Shown: in pieces, positions 6,189 through 48,696 of the stretch
Layout of the letters: each line of letters opens with the position of its first letter
How positions within the stretch are numbered: the stretch's first letter is position 1
DNA from: an uncultured Prevotellaceae bacterium
GTDB lineage: Bacteria > Bacteroidota > Bacteroidia > Bacteroidales > Bacteroidaceae
Assembly (NCBI GenBank): GCA_902776195.1
Contig: CACYPF010000008.1
Location: forward strand, 1 to 64,000
Reading direction: 5' to 3'
DNA: 64,000 nt
Position numbers and translations under genes: made by a program
The notes under the pieces: model-generated
Database searches by the model: none
Told to the model about the DNA's origin: nothing
What the model saw: only the letters and a program-made list of their open reading frames with translations

Positions 6189-6194
6189 AGAGTG
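6168..6194 (+). repeat. 27-bp junction repeat, copy 1 (inverted match at 9472-9498)
   Basis: A low-complexity block built from GTGAAGAGTG units. It is identical over 27 bases to the reverse complement of 9472-9498. Here it encodes the last residues of PurL and supplies the GTG start of the following gene. Confidence 0.8.
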
Positions 6195-7326: not shown

Positions 7327-7328
7327 CA

Positions 7329-9434: not shown

Positions 9435-9471
9435 AACTATCAATATTTTTTATTTAAACCCTATAATTCTT

Positions 9472-9498
9472 CACTCTTCACTTTTCACTCTTCACTTT
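9472..9498 (-). repeat. 27-bp junction repeat, copy 2
   Basis: Exact reverse complement of 6168-6194. It occupies the gap between two GH43 genes, and the stop codon of the upstream one (9492-9494) lies inside it. Confidence 0.8.
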
Positions 9499-10508: not shown

Positions 10509-10524
10509 TATTCGGTAGGTTTAC

Positions 10525-12492: not shown

Positions 12493-12501
12493 TATTTAAG
12501 A

Positions 12502-14454: not shown

Positions 14455-14473
14455 AATCTTATTTTTTATACGT

Positions 14474-16300: not shown

Positions 16301-16341
16301 AACCAAACTTCAATTTTTTAGTTTTTAAATCATTCAATTCT

Positions 16342-30907: not shown

Positions 30908-30914
30908 TTTAGCA

Positions 30915-33575: not shown

Positions 33576-36500
33576 TTACAGTCCCAGACGGAGTGTCATC
33601 GTGAACTGCTTAGGCATAGGCACGGCAACACCACCAGTATTGAAGAACTCAGGATCCTGACCGTTCAGTTTCTTGTCGGCATAAATCAGGAACAGGTTGG
33701 TAGCCTGCAACTTCAGGGAGAGATTGTTCAGCTTCAGCTTAGAGATCCACTTCTTGGGGAAATCATAACCGATGGAGATTTCCTTCATGCGGATGAAGTC
33801 ACCCTTGGCGATACGCTCTGTAGAGTAGTTATAGGCATTATAAGCATAGCTCAGGTCAGAGTCGTTCTGGTTCTGACGGCTTGAAGCGATCACCGGAACG
33901 GTGGTGACAGCCTCGTCACCGGGCACCATCCAGCGGTTGGCAAACTCCTTCGGCATGGAGTTCAGGTCGTTGTACGAATTCCTGAAGACAGGATCGAGGC
34001 GAACGACGTTACCGAAGCTGTAAGTAATGAAGACATTCAGCGTAATGCCTTTATATTTGAAGATATTACCAAACGAACCGACATCGGTAGGATCAACACT
34101 ACCACTATACTCCAAGAATTTCAGCTTTTCCTTGTCCTGTGTCTGGAAATAGATACCTGTCGTCGTGATGTTTCCATCCTGATCGAGGAAGGTAGGAAGA
34201 CCCTCGCTGTTCAGTCCCTTGAAGGGGATGGAGAACAGGGCACGTACGGGATAGCCCTCCAGGGCGAAACCGGTACCCGAGACAAGGTCGATGACACGCT
34301 TTACATTCTCCAGCTCCGTCACCTCGTTGTGGGTGTGAGAGTAGATGAAGTTAGTAGTCCAACTGAAGTCCGGGGTCTTGATCGGTGTGGCAGAGATAGA
34401 CATCTCGACACCTCTTGATTTCATGGAGGCTACGTTACCGTATTTCTGTCCACCCATCTGGGTATTGACGATACCGATCAGGTCATAGTTGTTACGCCAG
34501 TAGACATCAGCCTCGAAGTTGATGCGGTTGTTCAGGAAACCTAACTGGACACCCAGGTTGAACTCATGCTTCTTCTCGAAGGTCAGTTCACCGTTGGCAC
34601 GTTCGTACTCCTCCAATCCGCTCTCACGCAGACCGGCAGAGGGACGCCAGGGATTGTAACTGCGGATAACCGGCAGAGAGTTCGTAACCCATGAGGGACC
34701 GCTCTCAGCTGTCAGTGAGTAAGATGCCTTCAGGGTGGCTGTGGTCAGCACGTTCTTGAAAGTCTTCTGGAACCAAGGCTCCTCATGGGCATTCCATGCA
34801 CCAGATACGTTCCAGGTAGGCAACCAGCGTGCCTTCGTGGATTTTCCTAATTTGTTGGTACCCTCATAACGGATGGTACCGTTGATAGTATAGCGTCCCT
34901 TATAAGAATAGGTGGCGGTTCCGAAGAAAGCGGCACGACGCTCATGGGTATTGTCTAAGGTGAAATAGTCGGTATTCATTTCCGCACCCTTCTTGAACAC
35001 CTGATAAGCATAGTTAGGAATCTCACCTAATGAGTACTGCAAGCCCCAGCCACGGAACCAGTCTGCGGTACGGTCGATGCTGTTCACCTCCATACCACCA
35101 TACAGGTTGACAATATGGTCGTTAGCATAAACATCATTATAAGCAGCGGTGAGACGGAAGTCCCATGCACTCATCTTATTGGTATTCTTATTCATGATAC
35201 CACCATTGGGCAATATGGATATGGGCTGTGCATAAGGGTTCTCAGGATCGGTATAAAGGTATTGGTTATTATCACGGATCTTGGTATTACCCATGGCACG
35301 ATAAGCATTCGCCTGGTTAGAGTCGTCCAGAATATGGTGATTACGTGTTGCCTGATTGAACTTGAAGGCACCCAACACACCAAGTTCCACCTTCTGGATG
35401 GGCTTGTACTTCAACTCACCTTGTACACGAATATCAAAAATATCGAGGTCGATATTGTTGTTTTCCAACTCATGCAGAATATTGAAAGGTGCGTAGTTAC
35501 GGGTATAGAAGGTATTTGGATCCAGAGCACGGGAAGTGTTCAGGGCGTATGAATACGGGTTGATATCGAAGGAACGGTTCACCTGTCCTGATACCACGTC
35601 GGTCTCGGCAGACAAGGTGCCGGGGGCTTTCTGCTTACGATAGCTGGCATTGGCAATCATACTGAAGGTAACCTTGTTGGAGACCTTAAACGTATTATTC
35701 AGGTTAGCGGTGTAACGCTCTACCTTCGACTGCTTAGTCCATCCCGGGTCAAACATAGCGGAAACAGAGGCGTAGGTCTGGGCACGCTCAGTACCCGTAG
35801 AGATACTGATAGAGTGGTTGTGCTGAATAGCATTAGAGAACAACTCATCAAACCAGTCAGTATTGCGGTACTCAGCCTGGCGCAGATAATCGGCACGGGC
35901 CTCTAACGTATTTGCCAAACCGTATTGTCCGTTAGTAGCGTCATACTCACCAATTAACTGGTACATCTTACCATATACACCACTGGAAGCGGCATTAGAG
36001 GTCTCCGCATAGTTCAGGTAACCCTTCTGCTGCATCTCCTGGTAGATAGACATCTGATCCTGGGAGTTCATGATGTTGAAGGTGCTGTAAGAGGGTTTCA
36101 GACGCATGGTGTACTCACCGGTATAGTTGATGCGAGCCTGACCAGCCTTACCTTTCTTGGTGGTGATGACAATCACACCAGCCATGGCACGGGCACCGTA
36201 GATAGAGGTGGCACTACCGTCCTTCAGAATATCGAAGGTCTCAATATCGTCGGAGTTCAGACCTGCGATAGCACTGGATATCAGGGTATTGGCATCACCA
36301 GAAGACAAGTCGTCGGCACTCACGTCCGTCACATCCTCCATGATGACACCGTCAACCACCCACAGGGGCTTGGAGTTACCATAGATAGAGGTAGCACCAC
36401 GCACACGGATCTTCGGAGCTGTACCGAAGGTACCACTGACATTCTGTACCGATACACCGGCGGCACGTCCTTCCAGTGAGCGGGAGATATCTGCCATACC

Positions 36501-36836
36501 GTCAATCTTGGCGTCTGAGGCACTGATCTTGGTGGATGAACCAGTAAACAGTCGCTTGTCCACTTTCTGCATACCTGTGACAACCACTTCCTCAAGGGCT
36601 GCACTGGGCTGCAGCGTGATGGTCATACCGTTCTTGGGGGTCACTGTCTGAGACTCCAGACCAATATAACTCACTACAATCTTCTTACCCGAGGGCACGT
36701 TGATTGTGAAGTGACCATCGGCATCCGTTACCGTACCAGCCTTCTGTCCCTGCACCAGGACGGTAGCACCGATGATGGGCTGGTTGTCCTCGCCAGAGAT
36801 AACGGTACCAGTAACTTTTGTCTGGGCAAATGCCAT
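33576..36836 (-). CDS. SusC/RagA-family TonB-dependent transporter A, signal peptide missing
   Basis: 1086 residues beginning MAFAQTKVTG. The carboxypeptidase-regulatory-like domain, plug (VVDGVIMEDV..., DGSATSIYGARAMAGVIVITTKKGK) and barrel are all present, and the C-terminus is QFTMTLRLGL. Compared with paralogue B, the first 19-20 residues that would form the hydrophobic signal peptide are absent. The leader sequence AAATAATA is joined straight to GGAATGGCATTTGCC, and an in-frame stop (TAA) lies four codons before the ATG. As written the protein would not be exported. B has the signal peptide but lacks 24 residues that A keeps. The promoter at 36930-36960 drives it across the 18-bp recombination-like site. 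A misassembly here should be excluded. Confidence 0.9.
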   Translation of the reverse strand: MAFAQTKVTGTVISGEDNQPIIGATVLVQGQKAGTVTDADGHFTINVPSGKKIVVSYIGLESQTVTPKNGMTITLQPSAALEEVVVTGMQKVDKRLFTGSSTKISASDAKIDGMADISRSLEGRAAGVSVQNVSGTFGTAPKIRVRGATSIYGNSKPLWVVDGVIMEDVTDVSADDLSSGDANTLISSAIAGLNSDDIETFDILKDGSATSIYGARAMAGVIVITTKKGKAGQARINYTGEYTMRLKPSYSTFNIMNSQDQMSIYQEMQQKGYLNYAETSNAASSGVYGKMYQLIGEYDATNGQYGLANTLEARADYLRQAEYRNTDWFDELFSNAIQHNHSISISTGTERAQTYASVSAMFDPGWTKQSKVERYTANLNNTFKVSNKVTFSMIANASYRKQKAPGTLSAETDVVSGQVNRSFDINPYSYALNTSRALDPNTFYTRNYAPFNILHELENNNIDLDIFDIRVQGELKYKPIQKVELGVLGAFKFNQATRNHHILDDSNQANAYRAMGNTKIRDNNQYLYTDPENPYAQPISILPNGGIMNKNTNKMSAWDFRLTAAYNDVYANDHIVNLYGGMEVNSIDRTADWFRGWGLQYSLGEIPNYAYQVFKKGAEMNTDYFTLDNTHERRAAFFGTATYSYKGRYTINGTIRYEGTNKLGKSTKARWLPTWNVSGAWNAHEEPWFQKTFKNVLTTATLKASYSLTAESGPSWVTNSLPVIRSYNPWRPSAGLRESGLEEYERANGELTFEKKHEFNLGVQLGFLNNRINFEADVYWRNNYDLIGIVNTQMGGQKYGNVASMKSRGVEMSISATPIKTPDFSWTTNFIYSHTHNEVTELENVKRVIDLVSGTGFALEGYPVRALFSIPFKGLNSEGLPTFLDQDGNITTTGIYFQTQDKEKLKFLEYSGSVDPTDVGSFGNIFKYKGITLNVFITYSFGNVVRLDPVFRNSYNDLNSMPKEFANRWMVPGDEAVTTVPVIASSRQNQNDSDLSYAYNAYNYSTERIAKGDFIRMKEISIGYDFPKKWISKLKLNNLSLKLQATNLFLIYADKKLNGQDPEFFNTGGVAVPMPKQFTMTLRLGL

Positions 36837-36894
36837 TCCTATTATTTATACTATTTAATTATACTTTCACCTTATTTTGTGGTAAATTTGCATC

Positions 36895-36912
36895 CACCTC
36901 CCCGCAAGAGGT
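36895..36912 (+). repeat. left 18-bp inverted repeat, putative recombinase site
   Basis: CACCTCCCCGCAAGAGGT, the exact reverse complement of 45332-45349. Arms CACCTC and GAGGT flank the 7-base core CCCGCAA. It lies in the 5' leader of SusC A, between promoter and start codon. Confidence 0.85.
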
Positions 36913-36929
36913 CAGCACACATGATTTTG

Positions 36930-36960
36930 CAAAATTACAACAATTATTCACAATCTGCAA
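36930..36960 (-). promoter_or_regulatory. outward promoter at the left border, drives SusC A
   Basis: TAATTTTG (plus positions 36930-36937) and TTG (36958-36960) with a 20-base spacer on the minus strand. Transcription would start near 36923 and pass through the 18-bp repeat into SusC A. The block from -33 to -7 closely matches the promoter of the middle SusC at 41698-41728. Confidence 0.75.
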
Positions 36961-37072
36961 ATAAATTTTATAAAATCATGTCATTTTAAGCCAAAATTTA
37001 ACAAATCGGCTCTCTTTTCTTCCTTTTTGGTGCATTTTTATGCCAAAAAGTTCCGAAATGACAAATCAAAAT

Positions 37073-37107
37073 GAGCCGGGATGTCTCATGACGAGGTATC
37101 CCGGCTC
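37073..37107 (-). terminator. terminator of the middle SusC/SusD operon
   Basis: The 10-bp stem GAGCCGGGAT (37073-37082) pairs with ATCCCGGCTC (37098-37107) around a 15-base loop. On the minus strand ATTTTGATTTG follows. It separates the middle SusD from the operon A promoter. Confidence 0.8.
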
Positions 37108-37128
37108 ATATATAAATAAGGTGTAGGA

Positions 37129-38529
37129 TTAGTAACCTGCGTTCTGTACCAAAGATGGGTCGTAGTCAATCTCTCTCTGAGGGATAGGCATGATAGTACG
37201 TGGGTTATCGTAGTTGATCACGTTGCCTACCTGGTTCGTCACGCTCTGCTTGTTACGCCAGTAAGCGAAAGCGATCTGGTTCTCAGCGAAGAACTCCTTG
37301 GAATACTCGAAGATGATATCGTCGATGGTGACGGAGGGCTCATCAACATAACCGTCGATACGGTTCTTTCTCAGCTCGTTGATATAGGTGGCAGCTGCGG
37401 CAGCATCACCATTACCCACCAACTCAGCCTCGGCGGCAATCAGATACATCTCAGACAGACGGATGATCTTGGGGTTGTTGACATACAACATACCACGTCC
37501 AGGATATTTGGCAGGGAAATAGTAGGTGCCGCTCATACCAGAGATACTCTGCGCCTTGACGAGCGCTCCACGGATGTCATTGACAGGACCTGTCAGATAT
37601 TCATATAGTTTACCATCCTCATTGAAGGCACACTCAGGATATCCGTTGCCATCCGTGTAGTAACCTGCAGAGTTACGCTGAGGATTGTGCGTGTCTGTAA
37701 TCAACACTTCGAAGATAGACTCTGAGGTACCTTCCTTACCCCATACCTCTAAGTAATTGTCACGAGTGTACAACTTGTAAGCGCCACTCTGGATAACTGC
37801 TTTGGCGTCAGCGAGGGCTGAGTCGTAATCACCCATATAGAGAAAAGCACGAGCACGGAGTGCCTGGGCGGCATAATAGTTCATATAACCAGTGCCATTG
37901 TCCTCGTACATCATCTCCATACCCGTTGTCAGGTCTTTCACGATCTGGGTATAAGTCTCCTTCAAGGATGCACGTGAGCCTTTATAGTCAGCGTCATAGA
38001 CATCTGTTGAGAGGACGATACCGGAGTTGGCGGCATCCATATCGACTGTTGAAGGGATATGGGCGAACATACGGGCGATGTCGAAGTGCAGGAGACCTCT
38101 CCATGCATAGAGCTGTCCACGGAGATTCCTGATGTCACTTTCAGCATCCTCGTCATCAAGATCCTTAGACAACGCCAGTGCCTTGTTACAGTTGGCAATA
38201 GCCCGGTAGAAGTACCTGTAAGCATAGTCGGGCAGCTCATCATACTTCGTCATGGTATAGTTGGAGATAGGCTTGCTCTGACCGTAGTCATCCGCAATGG
38301 CAAACTCGTTGGTCAGCAAGTCAGCGTAAATAGCAAACTCAGCGCCGTAGGTCATACGCTCTTCCGACTGCAGATAGCCGATACCGTTTACCGCATTCTG
38401 CAGGTCTGACACTGTTGTGATAGCATCATCCACGGGAAGTGATGCAGAGGGCTCTGCGTCAAGGCTGCAGGAAGAGAGTGTCAGTCCGGCAACCAGTCCT
38501 AATGCTAAATATATCTTTTTCATATTCAT
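37129..38529 (-). CDS. SusD/RagB-family lipoprotein (middle pair)
   Basis: 466 residues, lipobox LTLSSCSLD, about 80 residues shorter than the SusD of operons A and B. The SusD fold is clear from NLRGQLYAWRGLLHFDIARMFAHIP and the C-terminal PKIIRLSEMYLIAAEAELVGNGDAAAAATYINELRKNR. It follows its SusC by 19 bases and ends in a terminator, so this is a two-gene operon with no enzyme partner. It lies inside the putative invertible segment. The ligand cannot be inferred. A start at 38523 (MKKIYL) is equally possible. Confidence 0.93.
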   Translation of the reverse strand: MNMKKIYLALGLVAGLTLSSCSLDAEPSASLPVDDAITTVSDLQNAVNGIGYLQSEERMTYGAEFAIYADLLTNEFAIADDYGQSKPISNYTMTKYDELPDYAYRYFYRAIANCNKALALSKDLDDEDAESDIRNLRGQLYAWRGLLHFDIARMFAHIPSTVDMDAANSGIVLSTDVYDADYKGSRASLKETYTQIVKDLTTGMEMMYEDNGTGYMNYYAAQALRARAFLYMGDYDSALADAKAVIQSGAYKLYTRDNYLEVWGKEGTSESIFEVLITDTHNPQRNSAGYYTDGNGYPECAFNEDGKLYEYLTGPVNDIRGALVKAQSISGMSGTYYFPAKYPGRGMLYVNNPKIIRLSEMYLIAAEAELVGNGDAAAAATYINELRKNRIDGYVDEPSVTIDDIIFEYSKEFFAENQIAFAYWRNKQSVTNQVGNVINYDNPRTIMPIPQREIDYDPSLVQNAGY

Positions 38530-38548
38530 GTCTTTTCTTTATGATTAA

Positions 38549-41500
38549 TTAGAAACTCAAGTTTAAACCGAACAAGAACTGACGGGTTGGAGGTGTGTCT
38601 GTCTGACGATAGCCATTGACATCGACATCCGGATCGACACTCTTCGACGCACAGTAAATCATGAACGGATTGGTGGTGCGGAAGTAGACACGCAGGTTGT
38701 TGATATACTTCTTGAACAAAGGAACATTGTAACCGAAGGTGATGTCACGGACACGGATGTTGTCAGTAGAGCGGATCTCACGAGAAGAGAACTTATCCCA
38801 ACGGTAGGGGTTGCCATAGATAGGTTTCGGGAACTCCACCACGTCACCTGGTTTCTTCCAGTAGTTTCCTACCACGTCGCTGTGCATGTTGAATGAACCG
38901 ATGCGCACACCGTCACTGTAGGTCAGGAAGTAGCCGGGATAGTCGAACATGTCAGCACCGAACTGATAGGAGATCATGAACGACAGGTCGAAGTCCTTGT
39001 AACGGAAGGTATTGGTGATACCACCCAGTACATCGGGTACAGCCTTGCCGACGATGGTCTTGCCAGCCTCTGCATAGGAGTTGGTGATTCCCTTGGACTC
39101 GTCCTCTGGGTCAATCCAGAACTCACCGAGTCCAGTCTCCGGGTCAACGCCTTTCCACTTAGGCAGGTAGAAGGTATGCATAGACTCCCCCTCACGGAGC
39201 AGGTACATATTACCGTCACCATACTGTACGTCGTCACCGCTAGGAAGCTGGTCGACCTTGATCTTCTGCCATGTCAGGTTGAAGTCTGTGTTCCAGCTGA
39301 AGTCCTTGGTCTTGATGTTCTGTGAGCTGACAGTGAACTCCAGACCGCTGTTCTTCAACTTACCGATGTTGGTGAGCTGACTGGGGAATCCTGTCACATA
39401 GGATACAGGTGTTGAGAAGAGCAGGTTGTCAGTGAGCTTGTTGTAGTACTCGAGTGTCAAGGTGACGCGGTTGTACAATGTCCAGTCAATACCCACGTTG
39501 AAGTTCTTGGACTTCTCCCAGCTCAGACTCTTATTACCGATATTATTATAATAGTAGGCGCTGCTGTTGCCATAACCGCCAGTAGTGGCATAGGTTGCCA
39601 TGTACTCGTAGAGGTCGGTGGGCAGGTTACCATTGGTACCGTAAGACAAACGCAGCTTCAGGTCACTGAACAGGTCGTTGTCCTTCAGGAAGTTCTCGCC
39701 AGAGAGACGCCAAGCACCTGATACAGACCAGAAGGTAGACCAGCGGTTGCCGGAAGCCAGACGAGAAGAGCCATCACTACGGAAGCTCAGTGAGAGGTAG
39801 TATTTGTTGTCGTAGTTATAGTCAACCTTACCGAGCCATGAGCTCAGGATAGACTCATAGGTAGCACTGCTGGCATCGTAGGGCTGACCGTTGGCAAGCT
39901 CGGGGAGCTTGTTGGTGCCGTATCCTTTAGCGGAAGCTGTCATATAGAGGAGTTTGCGGTTCTCATACTCATAACCTACCAGGGCATTGATAGAGTGGAG
40001 ACCGAACTTGTTGTCATAGCTCAGTGTGTTAGAGCTGGTCAGGGTCTTGCTGGTGAAGTCCCAACGCTGTCCCAGACCCTGCAGTGACTCACCATTCACA
40101 CTGTTGGGTGACCAGAACTCCTGGAGCTTATTGTTCGTGTAGTCATATCCGAAGATGGTACGTGCTGTGAGGTTATAAGGCAGTTTCACCTCAGCCTCGA
40201 AGTTACTCATGCTACGCATGATGTTTGACTTCACGAACTCGACATACTCACCAACCTCAGGACCAAACATATTGTTGGGGTTGCCTACCTTACCGAAGGC
40301 GACATCGTTGTTATAGGTGCCGTCTTCCAACTTGTTCTCGGCTGTTGGGTCGAGGGAGTAGAGTACAGACCATGGAGTAGTGGTGGCAAAACCTTGCTCC
40401 TGACTGCTCTGGTCACGATGACCCTTGGTGTCGGCGAAGGAGATCATCTGCTTCACACCCACCTTCAACCAGTTGTTCACCTGATGGTCTAAGTTAATAC
40501 GTCCGCTGTAACGCTTGAAGTTGCTGCCCCGGACGACACCATCTGTGTCTGAGTAACCCAGACCAACATAGAACTTCGTGCGGTCAGTACCTCCGTCGAT
40601 GGATACCTGGTGGTCCTGAGTCAGTGCGGAGCGATATACCTGGTCATACCAGTTAGTGTCTGTTGTTCCATCATAGTCACCCCAGAACCAGCCGTTACGT
40701 ACCTCCTCGTTAGCCAAGTCGATGGCATCCTGACCAGTGGCTCCATAGTACTCACCGAAGAAGTTCTTGATACCCTCGAAATAGTACTCCTTCAACTGGG
40801 CGGCATTCATCGTGTTCAACGCACTCTTCACAGCAATCTGCTGCCAACCGATCTGCATGTCATAATGAACATTGGTCTTACCGGTCTTACCTTTCTTGGT
40901 GGTGATGATGACAACACCATTGGCGGCACGGGAACCATACAGAGAGGCAGCGGCGGCATCCTTCAGGATGGTCATGCTCTCAATGTCGTTAGGGTTCAGG
41001 GATGCCAGAATAGACTGTGAGCGGATAGACGATGACATATAACCGTCTGAGTTTGCCAGCACGGGGACACCGTCAACGACATACAAAGGCTGGGTGGAAC
41101 CATTGATAGATCCGATACCACGGATCAGGATGTTCTGGTCAGCACCCGGGTCACCTGTAGAGGAACCTACACGTACACCGGCAACCTTACCCTCCAATGA
41201 TTTTACCAGAGATCCCTTCTCTGCCGACATGTCCCTGTCTTTCATGCTGGCTGCAGAACCAATGAAGGATGCCTTCTTTGCCGTACCATAAGCTACGACA
41301 ATCACTTCGTCCAGAGCCTTCTGGTCACTTGTCAGCACAATTCGCATGTTAGGACGGGCACTTACCTCGATGGGCTCCATACCCACATAGGTGATGCGAA
41401 GTGTATTCTTACCAGCGGGAACGGTCAGTGAAAACTTACCGTTAGAGTCTGTTACTGTACCTGTCGTTGTTCCAGCCACAAGAACAGAAGCACCGATAAC

Positions 41501-41611
41501 GGGCTCGTTATCCTCTTGTGAGACGACGGTACCATTAACTTTCATTTGTGCCAGTGCCATTCCCATACTGAGGGACAGGCAGGCAAGAAAAGTCATTAGT
41601 CTTTTTTCCAT
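38549..41611 (-). CDS. SusC/RagA-family TonB-dependent transporter (middle pair)
   Basis: 1020 residues with an intact signal peptide (MEKRLMTFLACLSLSMGMALAQ) and an intact regulatory-like domain (KVNGTVVSQEDNEPVIGASVLVAG...). The plug has LYVVDGVPVLANSD and AAAASLYGSRAANGVVIITTKKGK, and the barrel ends FLFGLNLSF. The signal peptide is related to that of SusC B, but the rest is a different subfamily from A and B. The promoter at 41698-41728 resembles that of SusC A. With its SusD partner it would import an unknown ligand, and its transcription should not depend on the orientation of the segment. Confidence 0.95.
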   Translation of the reverse strand: MEKRLMTFLACLSLSMGMALAQMKVNGTVVSQEDNEPVIGASVLVAGTTTGTVTDSNGKFSLTVPAGKNTLRITYVGMEPIEVSARPNMRIVLTSDQKALDEVIVVAYGTAKKASFIGSAASMKDRDMSAEKGSLVKSLEGKVAGVRVGSSTGDPGADQNILIRGIGSINGSTQPLYVVDGVPVLANSDGYMSSSIRSQSILASLNPNDIESMTILKDAAAASLYGSRAANGVVIITTKKGKTGKTNVHYDMQIGWQQIAVKSALNTMNAAQLKEYYFEGIKNFFGEYYGATGQDAIDLANEEVRNGWFWGDYDGTTDTNWYDQVYRSALTQDHQVSIDGGTDRTKFYVGLGYSDTDGVVRGSNFKRYSGRINLDHQVNNWLKVGVKQMISFADTKGHRDQSSQEQGFATTTPWSVLYSLDPTAENKLEDGTYNNDVAFGKVGNPNNMFGPEVGEYVEFVKSNIMRSMSNFEAEVKLPYNLTARTIFGYDYTNNKLQEFWSPNSVNGESLQGLGQRWDFTSKTLTSSNTLSYDNKFGLHSINALVGYEYENRKLLYMTASAKGYGTNKLPELANGQPYDASSATYESILSSWLGKVDYNYDNKYYLSLSFRSDGSSRLASGNRWSTFWSVSGAWRLSGENFLKDNDLFSDLKLRLSYGTNGNLPTDLYEYMATYATTGGYGNSSAYYYNNIGNKSLSWEKSKNFNVGIDWTLYNRVTLTLEYYNKLTDNLLFSTPVSYVTGFPSQLTNIGKLKNSGLEFTVSSQNIKTKDFSWNTDFNLTWQKIKVDQLPSGDDVQYGDGNMYLLREGESMHTFYLPKWKGVDPETGLGEFWIDPEDESKGITNSYAEAGKTIVGKAVPDVLGGITNTFRYKDFDLSFMISYQFGADMFDYPGYFLTYSDGVRIGSFNMHSDVVGNYWKKPGDVVEFPKPIYGNPYRWDKFSSREIRSTDNIRVRDITFGYNVPLFKKYINNLRVYFRTTNPFMIYCASKSVDPDVDVNGYRQTDTPPTRQFLFGLNLSF

Positions 41612-41697
41612 AAAAATACTATAAAATAAATATAATAATTGAGTTGTATCTCTTTTTACCTTTCTCTAATATCAGCAAACATACTAGCTGTGGGCTG

Positions 41698-41728
41698 CAA
41701 AAATACAACAATTATTCACAATTCGCAA
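41698..41728 (-). promoter_or_regulatory. promoter of the middle SusC/SusD operon
   Basis: TATTTTTG (plus positions 41698-41705) and TTG (41726-41728) with a 20-base spacer on the minus strand. The spacer contains GTGAATAATTGTTG, also found in the operon A promoter. A second -7-like box, TATGTTTG, lies closer to the gene at 41676-41683. Confidence 0.7.
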
Positions 41729-41907
41729 ATAATTTTATTAAAAATTCTTCTAATGGTGCCGTTTTTTAACTTTTCCACCCCATTTTCGATGCACTTTATT
41801 ATAAAAAAACGCAAAAAGTTTCCAAAGTGCAACTGCAAAAAAGAAGGGTCACCACAACCTCTTCAGCCACACTCCTCTATAATAATAAGGTACGCGCGAG
41901 AAGACTC

Positions 41908-42007
41908 TACATAAAGTTTTTTACCCTTGTTACCGTTGCCACCTTGCAACACGACCTGAAAATCAGGCGTTTAGATGTGGCAACGAGGTGACAAGGGTGA
42001 CAACGAT
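41908..42007 (+). repeat. left 100-bp inverted repeat of the VirE-like element
   Basis: Aligned without gaps to the reverse complement of 44211-44310, 88 of 100 bases match by my count. It begins TACATAAAGTTTTTTACCC and ends GGGTGACAACGAT. It is itself an imperfect palindrome: ACCCTTGTTACC..GTTGCCAC near 41923-41942 pairs with the stretch ending at 41998. Confidence 0.88.
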
Positions 42008-42040
42008 TCGCATTTTTACGCTTTTTTAGGAGTGTTTTTC

Positions 42041-42071
42041 TTGCATTTCCACTCATTTTTTTGTATCTTTG
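42041..42071 (+). promoter_or_regulatory. promoter of the VirE-like gene
   Basis: TTG (42041-42043), a 20-base spacer and TATCTTTG (42064-42071). Transcription would start near 42078, leaving a leader of about 285 bases that contains the 22-bp repeat array. Confidence 0.75.
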
Positions 42072-42118
42072 CAATTGATATCTCAAATCAGACTAAAACC
42101 TATTATTGATTATTCAAT

Positions 42119-42307
42119 ATGGTAGAGAACGACTTTATTTTCAACGAAAGCAAAGGTGTTTCCGGGTTGGTACCCTGGGGGAAACCAAAGAACCCCTTGG
42201 GTGGGACCAGTGGATTCCCTTGGAGGAACCAGTGGTTTCCTACGGGGAATCCATTGGTTTCCTACGGAGAAACCGATGGTTTCCCCTATGGGAACAAACT
42301 ATTCTGA
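42119..42307 (+). CDS. possible 62-residue leader protein encoded across the 22-bp repeats
   Basis: An open frame begins at an ATG about 40 bases after the predicted transcription start (MVENDFIFNESKG) and continues through the repeat array. It gives a Gly-, Trp-, Phe- and Pro-rich tail (repeats of GFP, NQWFP, GNPLVSYGE). Alternative frames through the array are also open because the units lack stops. It might be a small protein, a translated leader that controls the downstream gene, or simply an open frame created by the array. I recognise no family. Confidence 0.3.
   Translation: MVENDFIFNESKGVSGLVPWGKPKNPLGGTSGFPWRNQWFPTGNPLVSYGETDGFPYGNKLF
42165..42296 (+). repeat. six tandem 22-bp palindromic units
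   Basis: Units start at 42165, 42187, 42209, 42231, 42253 and 42275, with no spacers. Most follow the pattern (A/G)(T/A)TGGTTTCC-TACGG-GGAAACC, so each can form a small GGTTTCC/GGAAACC hairpin. Units 3-5 are most alike; 1, 2 and 6 are degenerate. The array lies in the leader of the VirE-like gene, 68 bases before its start codon, and looks like an iteron or protein-binding array. Confidence 0.85.
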
Positions 42308-42363
42308 TAGGGCGGAGCACCCCGACAAGCCATTTCATCAACCTAGTATAACTATTGAAGATT

Positions 42364-44211
42364 ATGAAACTAACATGTATCAAAACTGACAAGAGAAACA
42401 AGCAACACGTAAACCTGATGCCCCTTGAGACCTTCATGGAGCGGGTACTGGAAGACAATTATTTCGAGGATGTGGACGCACTGCGTACCTTCGTGCGGTA
42501 TGCGGAGTCGTGGAGTATCTTTGAAAGGATGCACAGACTTGCCGTCATCTACCCGTCGGCAGTGATGAAACCGAATCAGGAGGGCAACCTCGTCGCCCAG
42601 CAGTTTAACGGACTCTTCACCTTAACCATCTCACCGCTCAAGGACGAGGAGGAAGCAGAGGCTGTGAAACAGATGACCGCCATCCTGCCCTGCACGATGC
42701 TCTCCCTGCTGGGAAGTAGTGGCAGGAGTCTGAAAGTCATCGTGAGAGCATGCCGCCCAGACGGTTCACTGCCCCAGACGGAGGAGGAGATGGAGGTGTT
42801 CTGCAAACAGGCATACCCTATCCTCTGCGGACTCTACGAGCCGTTGGTAACGATGGCGCAGACAGCGGACTCTCTGCAAGTGGCACCTGCCGTCCGGGGG
42901 GAGGGGCTCCCGCTATGGATGACGGGGTTCCGCATGACGGTAGACCAGCACCCATACTACCATGCGGAGGCTACTCCCCTGCGGATTCCCGATGGTATCT
43001 CGATGCAGGAGAAAGGGAAGGTGACACCCGACGACTCACAGGAGAATGCCTCGGGTGCCGTCATCCAGAACACGAAAGACCTTATTTCCCTGCTGGACCG
43101 CCGCTATGCCTTCCGCATGAACATGGTGATGGGCTATGTGGAATACCGCCCGAAGGAGAAATGGCACTTTGGGTGGCGACCGGTCGACGAGCGAGTGCAG
43201 AACGGACTCGCCATGGAGGCACGGCTGGCGGGACTGAACGTATGGGACAAAGATGTCAGCCGGTACTTGCATTCTAACCTAGTACGTGCGTATAATCCTG
43301 TGGAGGAGTACCTCTGGGGACTCTACCGCAAATGGGACGGACACGACTATATCGCCGACCTGGCAAGACGGGTACCTACCAGGAATCCGCATTGGGAGGA
43401 GTGGTTCCGCATCTGGTTCCTGGGAATGGTGGCGCAATGGCTGGGAAAGAGCCGCCGCTATGGTAACTCCATCGTGCCCCTGCTCATCTCCAAACAGGGC
43501 TATAACAAGTCGACATTCTGCAAGTCGCTGATTCCCACGGACATGCAGTGGGGGTATAACGACAGCCTCGTGCTCTCGGAACGCAAGTCGGTGCTGCAGG
43601 CGATGAGTCAGTTCCTGCTCATCAACCTCGACGAGTTCAACCAGATATCACCCAAGGTGCAGGAGGGCTTCCTGAAGAATCTCGTGCAACTCGCCTCTGT
43701 GAAGGTGAAACGTCCCTACGGCAAACATGTCGAGGAGTTTCCGCGCCTCGCCTCCTTCATCGCCACGGCAAACGTGACGGATATCCTCTCCGACCCCACG
43801 GGGAGCCGCCGCTTCATCGGCATCGAGCTGACGGGACCTATCGACATGTCACAACCTATCAATTATAACCAGCTCTATGCGCAGGCTATGGCACTGATAG
43901 ACCAGAACGAGCCCTATTGGATGGATGACCGGCAAACCCTGGAGGTCATGGAGTCAAACCGCCAGTTCAAGCGCAGCACCCCCGAGGAGATGTTCTTCGA
44001 GGAGTGCTTTATGATACCGGAGCATGAGGGAGAAGGACAGTATATGACCACTGCCGCCATCTTCGCTGCCGTCAAGAAGAAGGGCGGCTCCGCCATACGC
44101 ACCGGTAATATACGCATCTTCGGACAATTCCTCTCCAATATCGAGAATATCAAGCGCAGACGTACCCGCGTGGGGACGGAATATCTCGTGATTCCAACCC
44201 CAAAAAGCTAA
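42364..44211 (+). CDS. VirE/DUF3874-type protein (BT4734/BF3469-like primase-helicase-like)
   Basis: 615 residues from the ATG at 42364; the frame extends only to a TTG at 42355. It resembles the Bacteroidota family with an N-terminal BT4734-like (VirE-N) domain, a central VirE/P-loop region and a C-terminal DUF3874 part. The N-terminal 230 residues include FVRYAESWSIFERMHRLAV-type segments. The centre has RNPHWEEWFRIWFLGMVAQWLG, the P-loop-like KQGYNKSTFCKSL, and an acidic LLINLDEFNQI Walker-B-like strand. TANVTDILSDPTGSRRFIGI resembles phage and plasmid primase-helicases. It may act in DNA replication or repair; no function is proven. Its GC-rich codon use and flanking 100-bp inverted repeats suggest acquisition as a unit. 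Confidence 0.82.
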   Translation: MKLTCIKTDKRNKQHVNLMPLETFMERVLEDNYFEDVDALRTFVRYAESWSIFERMHRLAVIYPSAVMKPNQEGNLVAQQFNGLFTLTISPLKDEEEAEAVKQMTAILPCTMLSLLGSSGRSLKVIVRACRPDGSLPQTEEEMEVFCKQAYPILCGLYEPLVTMAQTADSLQVAPAVRGEGLPLWMTGFRMTVDQHPYYHAEATPLRIPDGISMQEKGKVTPDDSQENASGAVIQNTKDLISLLDRRYAFRMNMVMGYVEYRPKEKWHFGWRPVDERVQNGLAMEARLAGLNVWDKDVSRYLHSNLVRAYNPVEEYLWGLYRKWDGHDYIADLARRVPTRNPHWEEWFRIWFLGMVAQWLGKSRRYGNSIVPLLISKQGYNKSTFCKSLIPTDMQWGYNDSLVLSERKSVLQAMSQFLLINLDEFNQISPKVQEGFLKNLVQLASVKVKRPYGKHVEEFPRLASFIATANVTDILSDPTGSRRFIGIELTGPIDMSQPINYNQLYAQAMALIDQNEPYWMDDRQTLEVMESNRQFKRSTPEEMFFEECFMIPEHEGEGQYMTTAAIFAAVKKKGGSAIRTGNIRIFGQFLSNIENIKRRRTRVGTEYLVIPTPKS

Positions 44212-44310
44212 TCGTTGCCACCCTTGCCACCTCGTTGCCACACGTAAACACCTGATTTCCAAGCAGTGTTGCAAGGTGACAACGGTTGCAAGGGTAAAAA
44301 ACTTTATGTA
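44211..44310 (-). repeat. right 100-bp inverted repeat of the VirE-like element
   Basis: Inverted copy of 41908-42007 (88 of 100 matches). It starts on the last base of the VirE-like stop codon and ends 5 bases from the stop of the recombinase gene. It contains short internal repeats of TTGCCACC/GTTGCCAC. Confidence 0.88.
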
Positions 44311-44314
44311 GGGA

Positions 44315-45277
44315 TTATAGCATCAGGCGATCAAGCAGTTCTTTGTTCGCCATGTCAATACGGTTGTCGTCAATCTCACGGATATAAGTCAGTGTCGTAT
44401 TGGGGGAGGTATGTCCCAAAGCCTTGGAGATGACTGAGAGGTCGACATTGGCATGATAGGCAATGCTCGCCCAGGAGTGTCGTGCGACGTATGATGTCAG
44501 TCGGCGACCTAATCCCATCATCTCTCCCAGTTTCCTCAGATGCCGGTTATAGCGGGAGCGGACTGACTCATACTCCTTTTCCCTGGCATCCCTGTCCGAA
44601 GCAGTCAGTATTGGGAATACATAGATGCTGTCTTCTCTGCTGTAACGGTCGATGATCTGTTGCATAAGAGGCTCTATCCTTACACGAACCCGCTGTCCAG
44701 TCTTATGCCGGTCATACACGATATAACCGTCTTTGCACTGTTGTTTCTGCAAGAAAGCCACATCCACGAAGGGCATCCCCAAGGCATAGAAACTGAAGAG
44801 GAAAATGTCACGGGAGAAAGCCAGAGGGGAAGAGGGAGGCAGCAGGATATGGCGCAACCGGGCAATCTCATCGATAGCGATGGAGCGTTTGTCGGTACAC
44901 ATCTTTCCAGTATAGATATTGTCAAACAAATCCTGGTGACGGCAGGACGGCTGCATCTGATAGAGTAAGGAGCGGATGGAGCGCATATAGCATGAGATGG
45001 TGTTTGGTGAGACATGCTGCTCCAGCAGCCACTGTTGGAAACCCTCCAGCAGATGGGCATCGACAGCACTCGTCACCACTTCCGTCCCAGCATAATGACC
45101 GAAGACACGCAAGGCTGTCTGGTAATTATTAATGGTACTCTTTGCCCGCAACCCAGTCAGTGACTGTACCAATTGAGTTGCCGAAGGAATAAACTGAGGG
45201 CTTACACAACCCTTTTTCTTGTTCTGCTTGTCACTGCCATACAAGCGGAATTTCAGACTAATTGAAAACTTAAACAT
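44315..45277 (-). CDS. tyrosine recombinase (phage-integrase family) at the segment border
   Basis: 320 residues from the ATG at 45277 (MFKFSISLKFR); the open frame extends to 45325, but that would cross a likely promoter (TATTTTTG, 45313-45320). An N-terminal SAM-like core-binding domain (TQLVQSLTGLRAKSTINNYQTALRVFG...) precedes the catalytic domain. Recognisable residues are the beta-hairpin Lys in RHKTGQ, Arg II in SYVARHSWAS, His in LGHTSPNTTL and nucleophile Tyr in TLTYIREID. Arg I, normally in an FYTRGMSF-type motif, is replaced by Leu (FYALGMPF). It reads away from SusC B and sits just inside the right 18-bp repeat, as expected for an invertase of SusC loci. The Leu substitution may reduce activity. 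Confidence 0.9.
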   Translation of the reverse strand: MFKFSISLKFRLYGSDKQNKKKGCVSPQFIPSATQLVQSLTGLRAKSTINNYQTALRVFGHYAGTEVVTSAVDAHLLEGFQQWLLEQHVSPNTISCYMRSIRSLLYQMQPSCRHQDLFDNIYTGKMCTDKRSIAIDEIARLRHILLPPSSPLAFSRDIFLFSFYALGMPFVDVAFLQKQQCKDGYIVYDRHKTGQRVRVRIEPLMQQIIDRYSREDSIYVFPILTASDRDAREKEYESVRSRYNRHLRKLGEMMGLGRRLTSYVARHSWASIAYHANVDLSVISKALGHTSPNTTLTYIREIDDNRIDMANKELLDRLML

Positions 45278-45331
45278 CTTTCTTGTTGTTTTAAATGAAA
45301 CGATTATAAAGGCAAAAATAATCAATTATCC

Positions 45332-45349
45332 ACCTCTTGCGGGGAGGTG
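45332..45349 (-). repeat. right 18-bp inverted repeat, putative recombinase site
   Basis: Reverse complement of 36895-36912. With base 45331 it reads CACCTC-TTGCGGG-GAGGTG, perfect 6-bp arms around a 7-base core. It lies between the recombinase gene and SusC B. Confidence 0.85.
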
Positions 45350-45420
45350 TAGATACATATACTACAAAAAATGAGATAGAATAATCATTAAATAGTTTAA
45401 ATAATAACAAGAGAGTGTTT

Positions 45421-48400
45421 ATGGAAAAAAGACTAACGATGTTTATGGCATGTCTGTTCCTCAGTTTAGGAATGGCATTTGCCCAGACAAAAGTTACTGG
45501 TACCGTAACGGATGCCGATGGTCACTTCACAATCAGTGTACCCTCGGGTAAGATGATTGTAGTGAGTTATATTGGTCTGGAAACCCAGACGGTGACTCCA
45601 AAGAATGGAATGACCATTACTTTGTATCCCAGTGCAGCCCTTGAAGAGGTGGTTGTAACAGGTATGCAGAAAATGGACAAGCGTCTGTTCACTGGTGCCA
45701 CATCAAAGGTGGATGCGGAGAAGGCGAAACTGGATGGTGTTGCCGATATATCCCGTTCACTGGAAGGACGTGTAGCAGGTGTATCAGTACAGAACGTCAG
45801 TGGTACTTTCGGTACTGCTCCCAAGATCCGTGTACGTGGTGCCACGTCAATCTATGGTTCATCTAAACCTTTGTGGGTTGTTGACGGAGTTATCATGGAG
45901 GATGTGACAGAGGTTGATGCCGATGCGCTGTCGTCTGGTGATGCAGAGACACTGATTTCATCTGCTATCGCAGGTTTGAACTCTGACGATATCGAGTCGT
46001 TCCAGATTCTGAAAGACGGTAGTGCGACCTCTATCTATGGTGCCCGTGCCATGGCTGGTGTGATTGTCGTTACTACTAAAAAAGGAAAGCAGGGACAGAC
46101 CCGCATCAACTATACCGGTGAGTATACCATGCGTCTGAAGCCCAGTTATTCCAATTTCAATATCATGAACTCACAGGAGCAGATGGGCATCTATCAGGAA
46201 CTGGAGAACAACGGTCTGATATCATTTGGTCGTACCTATCGTGCCACAAGTAGTGGTGTCTATGGTAAGATGTATCACTTGCTGAATACTTATGATCCTA
46301 CTACAGGTACCTACGCCTTGGCAAATACCCCTGAGGCAAGAAATGCTTATTTGAGGGAAGCAGAGATGCGTAATACAGACTGGTTTGATGAGTTGTTCTC
46401 AACTGCCATCATGCACAACCATTCTATCTCTATGTCAACGGGTACTGACAAGGCTCAGTACTATACTTCTTTCAGTTACATGAACGACCCAGGATGGACG
46501 GAGGCATCAAAGGTAGAGCGATTCACAACCAATATCAACGCCAACTTCAATATCTCAAAGAAGGTGACTATCAACATGATTGGTAATGCCAGTTACCGTA
46601 AGCAAAAGGCTCCTGGCACGACAAGCCAAAGCAGCAATGCGGTAACAGGTGCCACCAGTCGTGACTTTGACATCAACCCATATAGTTACGCTTTGAACAG
46701 TTCACGTACACTGGACCCCAATGCATTCTATATACGCAACTATGCGCCATTTAACATCCATAATGAGTTGGCAAACAACTATATGGATCTGGATGTAGTA
46801 GACATGAAAATTCAGGCTGAATTGAAATACAAGCCCATCCGACAGGTGGAGTTAGCCGCTCTGGCATCTTACAAATACTCTGGAACCACTCAGGCACACC
46901 AGATTCGGGAGAACTCTAATCAGGCGATGTCATTCCGTGCCATGGACGATGCCACCATGCGTGATGCCAACCCATGGTTATACACAGACCCTGATGATGC
47001 CAACTCATTACCTATCAGTGTGCTGCCAAATGGTGGTTTCTACAACGAAACAAAGTATAAGATGAACAACTGGAGTCTCCGACTGACAGGAAGTTATAAC
47101 GATGCCTTCAATAATGACATGCACATCGTGAACTTTTTCGGTGGTATGGAGATTAACAATACTGATCGTAGCCGCAGTCGTTTTGACGGTGTAGGTATGC
47201 AGTATGCCATGGGTTACCTTCCCAACTATGACTATCGCTACTTCAAGCAATCCAGTGAGCAGAATGCCGATTACTATGGACTGAGCAACAGTTATGGTCG
47301 TGAGGTATCGTTCTTCGGAACTGCTACCTATTCTTATAAAGGACGCTATATTGTTAACGGAACTGTTCGTTATGAAGGCTCTAACCGTTTGGGAAAAGCC
47401 ACCAGTGCTCGTTGGTTGCCTACATGGAACGTATCTGGAGCATGGAATGCCCATGAGGAGCCTTGGTTCCAAAAGACTTTCAAGAATGTGCTGACCCACG
47501 CCACACTGAAAGCCTCATACTCTCTGACTGGTGACAAACCTGCTACCAACAACGCACAGGTTATCATTCAGAGTTACAACCCTTGGCGTCCGTTTACCAA
47601 TGTCAAGGAGTCTGGACTGGAAATCTATGATTTTGCCAACCCAGATTTGACCTATGAGAAGAAGCATGAGTTCAACCTGGGTATTGACCTCGGTTTCCTG
47701 AATAACCGTATCAATGTACAGTTCGACTGGTACAAGCGTAATAACTATGACCTCATTGGTCCACGTGTACTCAACGGTACTACAGGTACGCTTCGTGATT
47801 ATGCCAATGTTGCCTCAATGCGTTCTCATGGTGAAGAGTTGAGCATTTCTACCAAGAATATTCTTACAAAAGATTTCCAATGGAGCACAGACTTCATTTT
47901 CGCCCATGTGAAAACCAAGGTAACAGATTTGGAAACTCATACGCGAGTCATCAGTATGATTAGCAATTCAGGCTTCACCATGCCAGGATATCCTTATCGT
48001 TCACTTTTCTCTATGGATTTCAAGGGGCTGAACGAGAATGGTGTCCCCACCTTTATCAACACGAATGGTGACCTGACCACCAGCGACCTTGACTTCCAGT
48101 CTTATGATACCGACTATTTGATTTATGAAGGTCCAACAGATCCGACCGTTACAGGTTCACTGGGTAACACTTTCAAGTATAAAGGTTTCACGCTGAATAT
48201 CTTTGCGACCTATTCGTATGGTAATGTGATTCGCCTTGACCCGTCGTTTGCCGCTTCTTACTCTGACTTAGACGCCATGCCGAAAGAGTTTAAGAACCGC
48301 TGGACGATGGCTGGTGATGAGAAATTCACAGATATCCCAGCAATTGCCGATTTGCGTATGTTGCAAAACGACTCACGTCTGGCATATGCTTATAATGCCT

Positions 48401-48657
48401 ACAATAAGTCTTCTGCTCGTGTGGCAAAGGGTGACTTCATCCGCATGAAGGAGATTTCGCTGAGTTATGACTTCCCCAAGAAGTGGATTGCCGCTCTGAG
48501 TCTGAACAGTCTCTCTCTGAAACTTCAGGCAACTAACCTCTTCCTGATTTACTCCGACAAGAAATTAAATGGTCAGGATCCTGAGTTCTTCAACACGGGT
48601 GGTGTTGCCGTGCCTATGCCTAAGCAGTTCACCTTCACCCTCCGCGTAGGACTTTAA
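45421..48657 (+). CDS. SusC/RagA-family TonB-dependent transporter B, partial loss of the N-terminal domain
   Basis: 1078 residues from the ATG at 45421; the frame also offers a GTG at 45415. The signal peptide is intact (MEKRLTMFMACLFLSLGMAFAQ). The mature start reads KVTGTVTDADGHFTI, whereas paralogue A has 24 further residues between the two GTV triplets. Those carry the first strands of the regulatory-like domain. The plug (VVDGVIMEDVTEVD, DGSATSIYGARAMAGVIVVTTKKGK) and barrel are complete, and the C-terminus closely matches A (LNGQDPEFFNTGGVAVPMPKQFT). No TAnnTTTG promoter lies between the recombinase gene and the start codon, so it may be silent in this orientation. Confidence 0.93.
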   Translation: MEKRLTMFMACLFLSLGMAFAQTKVTGTVTDADGHFTISVPSGKMIVVSYIGLETQTVTPKNGMTITLYPSAALEEVVVTGMQKMDKRLFTGATSKVDAEKAKLDGVADISRSLEGRVAGVSVQNVSGTFGTAPKIRVRGATSIYGSSKPLWVVDGVIMEDVTEVDADALSSGDAETLISSAIAGLNSDDIESFQILKDGSATSIYGARAMAGVIVVTTKKGKQGQTRINYTGEYTMRLKPSYSNFNIMNSQEQMGIYQELENNGLISFGRTYRATSSGVYGKMYHLLNTYDPTTGTYALANTPEARNAYLREAEMRNTDWFDELFSTAIMHNHSISMSTGTDKAQYYTSFSYMNDPGWTEASKVERFTTNINANFNISKKVTINMIGNASYRKQKAPGTTSQSSNAVTGATSRDFDINPYSYALNSSRTLDPNAFYIRNYAPFNIHNELANNYMDLDVVDMKIQAELKYKPIRQVELAALASYKYSGTTQAHQIRENSNQAMSFRAMDDATMRDANPWLYTDPDDANSLPISVLPNGGFYNETKYKMNNWSLRLTGSYNDAFNNDMHIVNFFGGMEINNTDRSRSRFDGVGMQYAMGYLPNYDYRYFKQSSEQNADYYGLSNSYGREVSFFGTATYSYKGRYIVNGTVRYEGSNRLGKATSARWLPTWNVSGAWNAHEEPWFQKTFKNVLTHATLKASYSLTGDKPATNNAQVIIQSYNPWRPFTNVKESGLEIYDFANPDLTYEKKHEFNLGIDLGFLNNRINVQFDWYKRNNYDLIGPRVLNGTTGTLRDYANVASMRSHGEELSISTKNILTKDFQWSTDFIFAHVKTKVTDLETHTRVISMISNSGFTMPGYPYRSLFSMDFKGLNENGVPTFINTNGDLTTSDLDFQSYDTDYLIYEGPTDPTVTGSLGNTFKYKGFTLNIFATYSYGNVIRLDPSFAASYSDLDAMPKEFKNRWTMAGDEKFTDIPAIADLRMLQNDSRLAYAYNAYNKSSARVAKGDFIRMKEISLSYDFPKKWIAALSLNSLSLKLQATNLFLIYSDKKLNGQDPEFFNTGGVAVPMPKQFTFTLRVGL

Positions 48658-48696
48658 TAGAATAAAGGTAAAACAAGATATAAGTAAATAATGATT

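What the first reader, a model, noticed from the sequence alone, without database searches (positions are those of the whole stretch)
36895..45349. Candidate either/or DNA inversion switch between two paralogous import operons
Two homologous four-gene operons (SusC, SusD, HExxH lipoprotein, DUF4302 lipoprotein) diverge from an 8.4-kb segment. The segment is bounded by an exact 18-bp inverted repeat, CACCTCCCCGCAAGAGGT. At 45331-45349 the site has perfect 6-bp arms around a 7-base core; at 36895-36913 one outer arm base differs. This is the layout of a tyrosine-recombinase crossover. Homology continues outward from each repeat through the leader and the genes, and stops inward. A recombinase gene sits at one border. 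SusC-locus inversions are known in Bacteroides; a two-way switch choosing between complete paralogous operons, with a third SusCD and a VirE-like element carried in the flipping segment, would be a notable variant.
Basis: partly seen in the sequence, partly recalled or inferred. Interest (0 to 1): 0.85.

Follow-up and report, generated by a model that had tools for sequence, protein, structure and literature searches.

The report
Two-way promoter switch between transporter operons
A Prevotella-like bacterium carries a DNA segment with a promoter and its own recombinase that appears able to flip between two rival nutrient-import operons, switching on only one at a time, and related bacteria carry the same kind of switch, in some cases in the opposite orientation.

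Summary
Two divergent SusC-SusD-HExxH-DUF4302 operons flank an 8.4-kb segment bounded by an exact 18-bp inverted repeat (palindromic ACCTC-N7-GAGGT), with a tyrosine recombinase at one border. The segment has one outward Bacteroidota-type promoter motif, at its left end only.

Comparison turned one locus into a family. In 29 loci of the window's genus a related recombinase lies between divergent SusC genes. Paired sites were placed in 26 of these plus one locus cut by a contig end. The two 7-bp cores are identical in 25 of these 27; those 25 hold 21 different cores. Exactly one inner end carries the promoter motif in 26 of 26 scored. Opposite orientations occur between species: G248/G275 keep both flanking operons while the segment is inverted; G131/G169 is similar but weaker. 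The window's right operon is promoter-distal here and promoter-proximal in G037.

It is a new variant of a known kind (promoter inversion, SusC/SusD phase variation): unlike the B. fragilis shufflon, promoter and recombinase flip between two fixed operons. Not shown: inversion in this strain; expression. Both outer SusC genes appear 5'-truncated, probably assembly damage, but real lesions are not excluded.

The parts
36895..36912 (+). left crossover site (ACCTC-CCCGCAA-GAGGT), inverted copy of the right site
45331..45349 (+). right crossover site (CACCTC-TTGCGGG-GAGGTG)
36930..36965 (-). only outward promoter motif at the two ends of the segment (TAATTTTG, 25 bp inside the left site), pointing at the left operon
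   Evidence: no such motif within 160 bp of the right site pointing out
44315..45325 (-). tyrosine recombinase (Phage_int_SAM_5 + Phage_integrase); probable ATG start at 45277
33576..36836 (-). left SusC; as assembled it lacks the normal start codon and most of the signal peptide
31875..33530 (-). left SusD-like protein
   Evidence: SusD-like_3 3.1e-40
30915..31865 (-). left HExxH lipoprotein (TIGR04549, Peptidase_Mx1)
29357..30922 (-). left DUF4302 (+BACON) lipoprotein
37129..38529 (-). inner SusD (cargo of the segment)
38549..41611 (-). inner SusC (cargo), full-length N-terminus
41696..41743 (-). inner SusC's own promoter-like region, 88% like the left-end promoter region
37071..37109 (-). 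inverted repeat just after inner SusD, probable terminator separating the cargo from the switch promoter (inferred)
42355..44211 (+). VapE-like / DUF3874 protein (the 'VirE-like' element)
41907..42016 (.). 110-bp dispersed repeat left of VapE (inverted partner 44202-44311)
44202..44311 (.). 110-bp dispersed repeat right of VapE
45415..48657 (+). right SusC; signal peptide present, 22 residues of the N-terminal extension missing relative to G037
48691..50322 (+). right SusD-like protein
   Evidence: SusD-like_3 3.2e-30
50361..51467 (+). right HExxH lipoprotein
51480..52772 (+). right DUF4302 lipoprotein

Best explanation
The 8.4-kb segment is an invertible either/or promoter switch. The recombinase encoded inside it recombines the two ACCTC-N7-GAGGT sites within their identical 7-bp core and flips the segment. 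The one outward promoter then lies next to either the left or the right SusC-SusD-HExxH-DUF4302 operon, so only one is transcribed. In the assembled orientation the left operon is ON and the right one OFF. The inner SusCD and the VapE-like gene ride along; the inner SusCD has its own promoter motif. Shown by sequence: sites, promoter asymmetry, recombinase gene, recurrence, opposite orientations between species. Inferred: catalysis by this recombinase, flipping in this strain, transcription, and the purpose (varying surface transporters against phage, immunity or changing nutrients).
For: Exact inverted sites at both operon leaders. In 29 loci with divergent SusC genes around the recombinase, sites sought without using core identity had at most 2 arm mismatches on both sides in 25; cores matched in 23 of those 25 (G340 at one of two tied candidates), and in 16 of the 16 with perfect arms. 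In the final table cores match in 25 of 27 loci, with 21 distinct cores among the 25. G248 and G275 are counterparts in both flanking operons, yet have different cores, each matched within its locus: both sites changed together. Exactly one inner end has TAnnTTTG 20-90 bp from the site in 26 of 26 (G406 left out; the range was set); background 31 of 1394 windows. G248 and reversed G275: flanks direct at 84.6% and 82.9%, the recombinase part of the segment inverted at 72%, direct homology ending and resuming at the sites. G131 and G169: right flank about 90% direct, segment 95.6% on the opposite strand. The counterpart of the window's right operon (98.5% over 3401 bp) is next to the promoter motif in G037 and away from it in the window and G035; in RGIG1062 (84.4%) it is also away.
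Against: No read data; the orientation in G035 is the same as here. G131's arms share an exact block of about 300 bp, so its assembled orientation could be arbitrary. As assembled, the ON SusC (left) lacks a normal start and signal peptide, so the switch may be damaged here, if the assembly is right. In 3 of 26 loci (G040, G138, G257) the promoter motif sits at the other end of the recombinase gene. In G234, G390 and G351 (3 of 29) no acceptable pair of sites was placed; G406 has two nested, different site pairs and motifs at both ends; G291's cores differ by one base. Outward of the sites, similarity of the two leaders is low in G367 and G377 (0.57, 0.59). The loci were found through the recombinase, so its linkage to the sites is not independent evidence.
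Confidence: 0.83

Rival explanations
1. The palindrome is an operator or a 5'-UTR stem-loop shared by two duplicated operons; the segment does not flip.
For: The site lies in the leader, 25 bp downstream of the promoter motif on the left, and could form a short hairpin in RNA.
Against: A regulator site should keep its centre across loci; instead arms are nearly constant while cores differ between loci and match within a locus. The right copy has no outward promoter motif before it. Segments are inverted between species at these sites.
Confidence: 0.06
2. Inversions happen, but by ordinary homologous recombination between the similar leaders; the recombinase is incidental.
For: Leaders are similar outward of the sites in most loci, with an exact block of about 300 bp in G131.
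Against: The longest exact block shared by the two arms is 40 bp in the window, 56 in G248 and 62 in G275; direct homology between G248 and reversed G275 ends and resumes at the sites; a palindrome with a matched core is what a tyrosine recombinase needs, not homologous recombination.
Confidence: 0.07
3. The locus is an assembly product: two homologous operons joined wrongly, with the deletions in both SusC 5' ends as traces.
For: Window L and R, G035 L and R, G020 L and R and G169 R have different apparent 5' deletions (frameshifting in G020 and G169), within the region shared by the two copies.
Against: The same layout recurs in 29 loci with other genes; the window and G035 share the right half at 96.7% over 10.5 kb across the right site. 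The deletions may well be artefacts, the layout not.
Confidence: 0.04

Closest known systems
Bacteroides fragilis SusC/SusD shufflons (region EE; invertase Tsr0667)
   Same: DNA inversion choosing which SusC/SusD pair is expressed (passages of PMC5729914 and PMC4747536); that Tsr0667 is a tyrosine recombinase is recalled.
   Different: There, gene pairs sit in the inverting segments and are brought downstream of an invertible promoter, with inverted repeats overlapping the susC start codon, and Tsr0667 acts on three clusters and nine other regions. Here the outer operons stay put, promoter and recombinase flip between them, and cores differ from locus to locus.
Mpi-type invertible polysaccharide promoters of B. 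fragilis
   Same: Promoter inversion; [quoted passage not shown]
   Different: A master invertase acting at distant regions; on/off control of one operon (recalled). Here either/or, with the recombinase inside the segment.
Salmonella Hin switch (recalled)
   Same: Recombinase gene and promoter inside the invertible segment.
   Different: Serine recombinase; only one side has the driven operon, the other choice works through a repressor.
Campylobacter fetus sapA inversion (recalled; one search gave no paper on it)
   Same: A multi-kb segment with one promoter flips between two divergent surface-protein genes that share a 5' region.
   Different: Homology-driven, as recalled, and an S-layer protein rather than transport operons.

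Membership tests
Site-specific promoter inversion (inverton) | paired inverted recombination sites around the segment | tested here: met
Site-specific promoter inversion (inverton) | promoter inside, pointing out at one end only | tested here: met
   motif level only; 26 of 26 scored loci, G406 left out
Site-specific promoter inversion (inverton) | both orientations observed | tested here: inconclusive
   seen between species (G248/G275, G131/G169); not testable in this strain; G035 has the same orientation
Site-specific promoter inversion (inverton) | orientation sets expression | not testable with these tools
   needs RNA data
Tyrosine recombinase | Phage_integrase domain with SAM-like N-domain | tested here: met
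   PF00589 8.7e-11, PF13102 2.2e-10
Tyrosine recombinase | catalytic residues R-K-H/R-H-Y | tested here: inconclusive
   K208, R282, H305, Y314 invariant in 29 sequences; in the alignment to 4a8e the profile has GmPF where 4a8e has GLRV, and YvaR where it has HQLR; invariant R147 may stand in (inference); catalytic roles recalled
B. fragilis SusC/SusD shufflon | SusC/SusD pairs inverted into place behind a promoter | tested here: not met
   the outer operons lie outside the sites
B. fragilis SusC/SusD shufflon | served by the Tsr0667 master invertase | not tested
   Tsr0667 sequence not at hand; its paper is not held
SusC/RagA TonB-linked import operon with HExxH lipoprotein | TIGR04056 SusC and TIGR04549 lipoprotein above cut-off | tested here: met
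   (P0003-P0005, P0009, P0010)

The most novel reading that the evidence does not exclude
A genus-wide family of self-contained, mutually insulated two-way switches in Prevotella: recombinase and promoter flip as one module between two whole transporter operons, each locus has a private 7-bp core, changed at both sites in concert, so that it recombines only with itself, and operons are exchanged as partners between loci and species (for example the window's right operon with other partners in G037 and RGIG1062), sometimes with further transporters or VapE genes loaded into the flipping segment.
Probability: 0.55. Interest if true: 0.74.

Novelty: new variant of a known kind. Interest (0 to 1): 0.64.

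Why it matters
SusC/SusD transporters are major surface proteins of gut and rumen Bacteroidota and help decide what a cell can eat; some are thought to be phage or immune targets (general knowledge). A switch that forces a choice between two complete operons, carried with its own recombinase and a short readable site, gives a genome-readable rule (matched core, one promoter) for finding and testing such switches in metagenomes, where B. fragilis is the usual model. Seven-base cores that match within and differ between loci make insulation between parallel switches directly testable.

Tried and rejected
Looked for the opposite orientation of this very locus: G035 has the same one. A scan of viral contigs for the 18-bp site gave one contig, a chance match with no blastn homology to the window or three related loci.

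First thought about the SusC 5' ends: that the 40-bp identical block (36802-36841 / 45467-45506) is a second crossover. Dropped: any two offset deletions leave such a block, a full-length counterpart exists in G037, and frameshifting lesions in G020 and G169 point to assembly damage. Not proven.

Looked for the same layout outside the genus: of 11 regions fetched around recombinase relatives in other genera of the family (G674, G505, G449, G552, G486 three times, G474, G488, G645, G696) none had a divergent SusC pair; some were cut by contig ends. No regions were fetched around the hits outside the family. Recombinase loci in or near the genus without such a pair in the sequence held: G118, G322, G220, G023, G100, G288, G334, G075, G042, G233, G359 (two), G318, MN60 (two), HUN156, G306, and a second recombinase each in G248 and G377; G519, second loci of G322, G291, G027, G312 and G377, G024, G266; and 11 of the 12 regions. 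Two regions held no recombinase, my coordinates having missed it (G406, G118). Several of these stretches are short or end at a contig end, and SusC genes were recognised only by blastp to the three window SusCs.

Literature: the papers listed (25 of 57 shown; 15 of 29 shown), 55-58, 80 and 81 include none whose title or opening abstract is on SusC inversion in Prevotella; the library lacks most subscription papers and preprints, so absence from print is not claimed.
Full report
OBSERVATION. The 18-bp inverted repeat is exact at 36895-36912 and 45332-45349; shuffles give a mean of 0.10 matches at up to 3 mismatches in the window, and 2 are found. The sites read ACCTC-TTGCGGG-GAGGT toward each outer SusC gene. 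Outer operons: SusC 33576-36836, SusD 31875-33530, HExxH 30915-31865, DUF4302 29357-30922 on the left; SusC 45415-48657, SusD 48691-50322, HExxH 50361-51467, DUF4302 51480-52772 on the right. Inside: an inner SusD/SusC pair, a VapE-like gene with DUF3874, and a tyrosine recombinase whose longest open frame (336 residues) begins 7 bp from the right site.

PROMOTER. The Bacteroidota -7 motif TAnnTTTG (motif recalled) occurs pointing outward only at the left inner end, 25 bp from the site (TAATTTTG, 36930-36937); the 160 bp before the right site have none. The inner SusC has a similar promoter region of its own (41696-41743, 88% like 36928-36975), and an inverted repeat just after inner SusD (37071-37109) may end its transcript (inference).

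RECURRENCE. A scan of 150 genus genomes for the site (up to 1 mismatch) found it in three, the window's included; a second form of the pattern in 399 genomes gave the same three. G035, whose contig has the length of RUG037's OMWH01000007.1, has the same locus and orientation; the right half matches at 96.7% over 10.5 kb, the left operon at about 78%, and its inner SusC is only 28% identical to the nearest window SusC. G040 has a minimal form: SusC, site, recombinase, site, SusC with 1.5 kb between the sites, both cores carrying the same substitution.

A search with the alignment of these three recombinases gave matches at E <= 1e-40 in 124 of 399 genus genomes. I fetched flanks of the best matches and of some weaker ones, not of all. 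In some searches, 29 loci have SusC genes diverging from the recombinase. Searching each SusC leader for the best site without regard to the core, both sides had at most 2 arm mismatches in 25 of 29; the cores were identical in 23 of these 25 (G340 counted with one of two tied candidates); the misses are G390 and G291. All 16 loci with perfect arms on both sides had identical cores. The final table has 27 loci: 26 of the 29, plus G073, whose right side is cut off by the contig end; G234, G390 and G351 were dropped for want of a site pair. Some of its pairs were chosen from inverted repeats or from near-identical sites, so its 25 of 27 identical cores (21 distinct among the 25) is a less independent count than that. 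Exactly one inner end had the motif 20-90 bp from the site in 26 of 26, a range set; G406, with two nested site pairs and motifs at both ends, was left out; background frequency was 31 of 1394 windows. In 23 of the 26 the promoter motif points the same way as the recombinase gene; G040, G138 and G257 differ. Four pairs are close or fairly close relatives (window/G035, G131/G169, G312/G051, G248/G275), so independent cases number about 23. Inward of the sites the two ends are about as alike as shuffled sequence, G406 excepted; outward, identity over 150 bp is 0.57 (G367) to 1.0 (G131) and above 0.8 in 19 of 27.

OPPOSITE ORIENTATIONS. G248 and G275 keep both flanking operons. With G275 reversed, direct homology covers 4310-9079 (84.6%) and 11836-16794 (82.9%) of G248 (sites at 9095 and 11828), while 8912-10034, the recombinase part of the segment, aligns on the opposite strand at 72%; the rest of G248's longer segment has no counterpart. 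The promoter motif thus points at different operons in the two species. Their cores differ from each other (CCGCGCG, TGACGGG) but match within each locus. The exact blocks shared by the arms are 56 and 62 bp, short for an assembler to confuse. G131 and G169 share the right flank (about 90%) and the segment, the latter on opposite strands (95.6%); G131's exact block of about 300 bp makes that case weaker. The counterpart of the window's right operon (98.5% over 3401 bp) is promoter-proximal in G037; in the window and G035 this operon is promoter-distal. G312 and G051 share segment and right operon, but their left operons are not each other's counterparts, which suggests partner exchange.

A CAVEAT. 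As assembled, left SusC starts at MAFAQ without a signal peptide, and right SusC lacks 22 residues that the G037 counterpart has. G035 shows other deletions in both copies; G020 (both) and G169 (right) show frameshifting ones; G313 right has a stop codon. They lie in stretches that the two copies of a locus share, where short-read assembly is weakest, so I favour assembly damage. How these genomes were sequenced is not known to me. Real deletions are not excluded, and then this particular switch may be partly broken.

THE RECOMBINASE. It matches Phage_integrase and Phage_int_SAM_5. K208, R282, H305 and Y314 are invariant in 29 sequences. In the alignment to 4a8e the profile has GmPF opposite GLRV and YvaR opposite HQLR, so the first arginine and the histidine of HxxR are not in the usual places (roles recalled); an invariant R147 may serve. 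The best-matching solved sequences are a XerC-like protein and XerA.

COMPARISON WITH WHAT IS KNOWN. Passages of PMC4747536 describe Tsr0667 as responsible for shufflon-type inversions at three SusC/SusD clusters and nine other regions of B. fragilis. Passages of PMC5729914 describe inversion of large segments that brings alternative SusC/D-like pairs downstream of an invertible promoter. Passages of PMC10939037 report inversions near SusC/SusD whose orientation differs in IBD; the word Prevotella does not occur in its main text. Passages of PMC12632263 review inversions in Bacteroides. The mechanism class is therefore known; the arrangement (two fixed complete operons, a flipping promoter-recombinase module, cores private to the locus) appeared in none of the passages I read. 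Two primary papers on B. fragilis could not be read.

RANGE. Relatives of the recombinase at E <= 1e-60 occur in 128 of 301 family genomes and 38 of 295 order genomes, but none of the 11 regions fetched from other genera had the SusC-pair layout. So far I have seen the layout only in the window's genus, within this limited sample.

VERDICT. It is best described as a new variant of promoter inversion and one of a recurring family; flipping in this strain and its effect on expression remain to be shown.

Noticed in passing
window 41907-42016 and 44202-44311: The VapE-like gene is flanked by a 110-bp inverted repeat (87%) that belongs to a dispersed repeat with 23 matches in the genome, these two included; G035 has the same pair around its VapE. 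Possibly a mobile or repeat-targeted unit.
   Followed up: partly
window 36730-36860 and 45415-45560; G035, G020, G169 leaders: Different short 5' lesions in SusC genes at these switches, some frameshifting, in the stretch shared by the two copies: assembly damage or a deletion hotspot.
   Followed up: partly
L081 (G406) 8883-10912: Two nested inverted site pairs with different cores around one recombinase, and promoter motifs at both ends; may be a more complex switch.
   Followed up: no
L077 (G112) 6665-10365: A VapE-like gene also lies inside this switch segment, so loading VapE into the flipping DNA is not unique to the window.
   Followed up: no
window 44315-45325: The recombinase lacks the usual first catalytic arginine and the HxxR histidine in their normal positions, as do the 28 relatives aligned with it.
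   Followed up: partly
L185 (G027:C58) 4977-10121: A related recombinase without SusC neighbours in the stretch held is flanked by an exact 23-bp inverted palindromic repeat (AACTC-N7-GAGTT); it may control something else.
   Followed up: no
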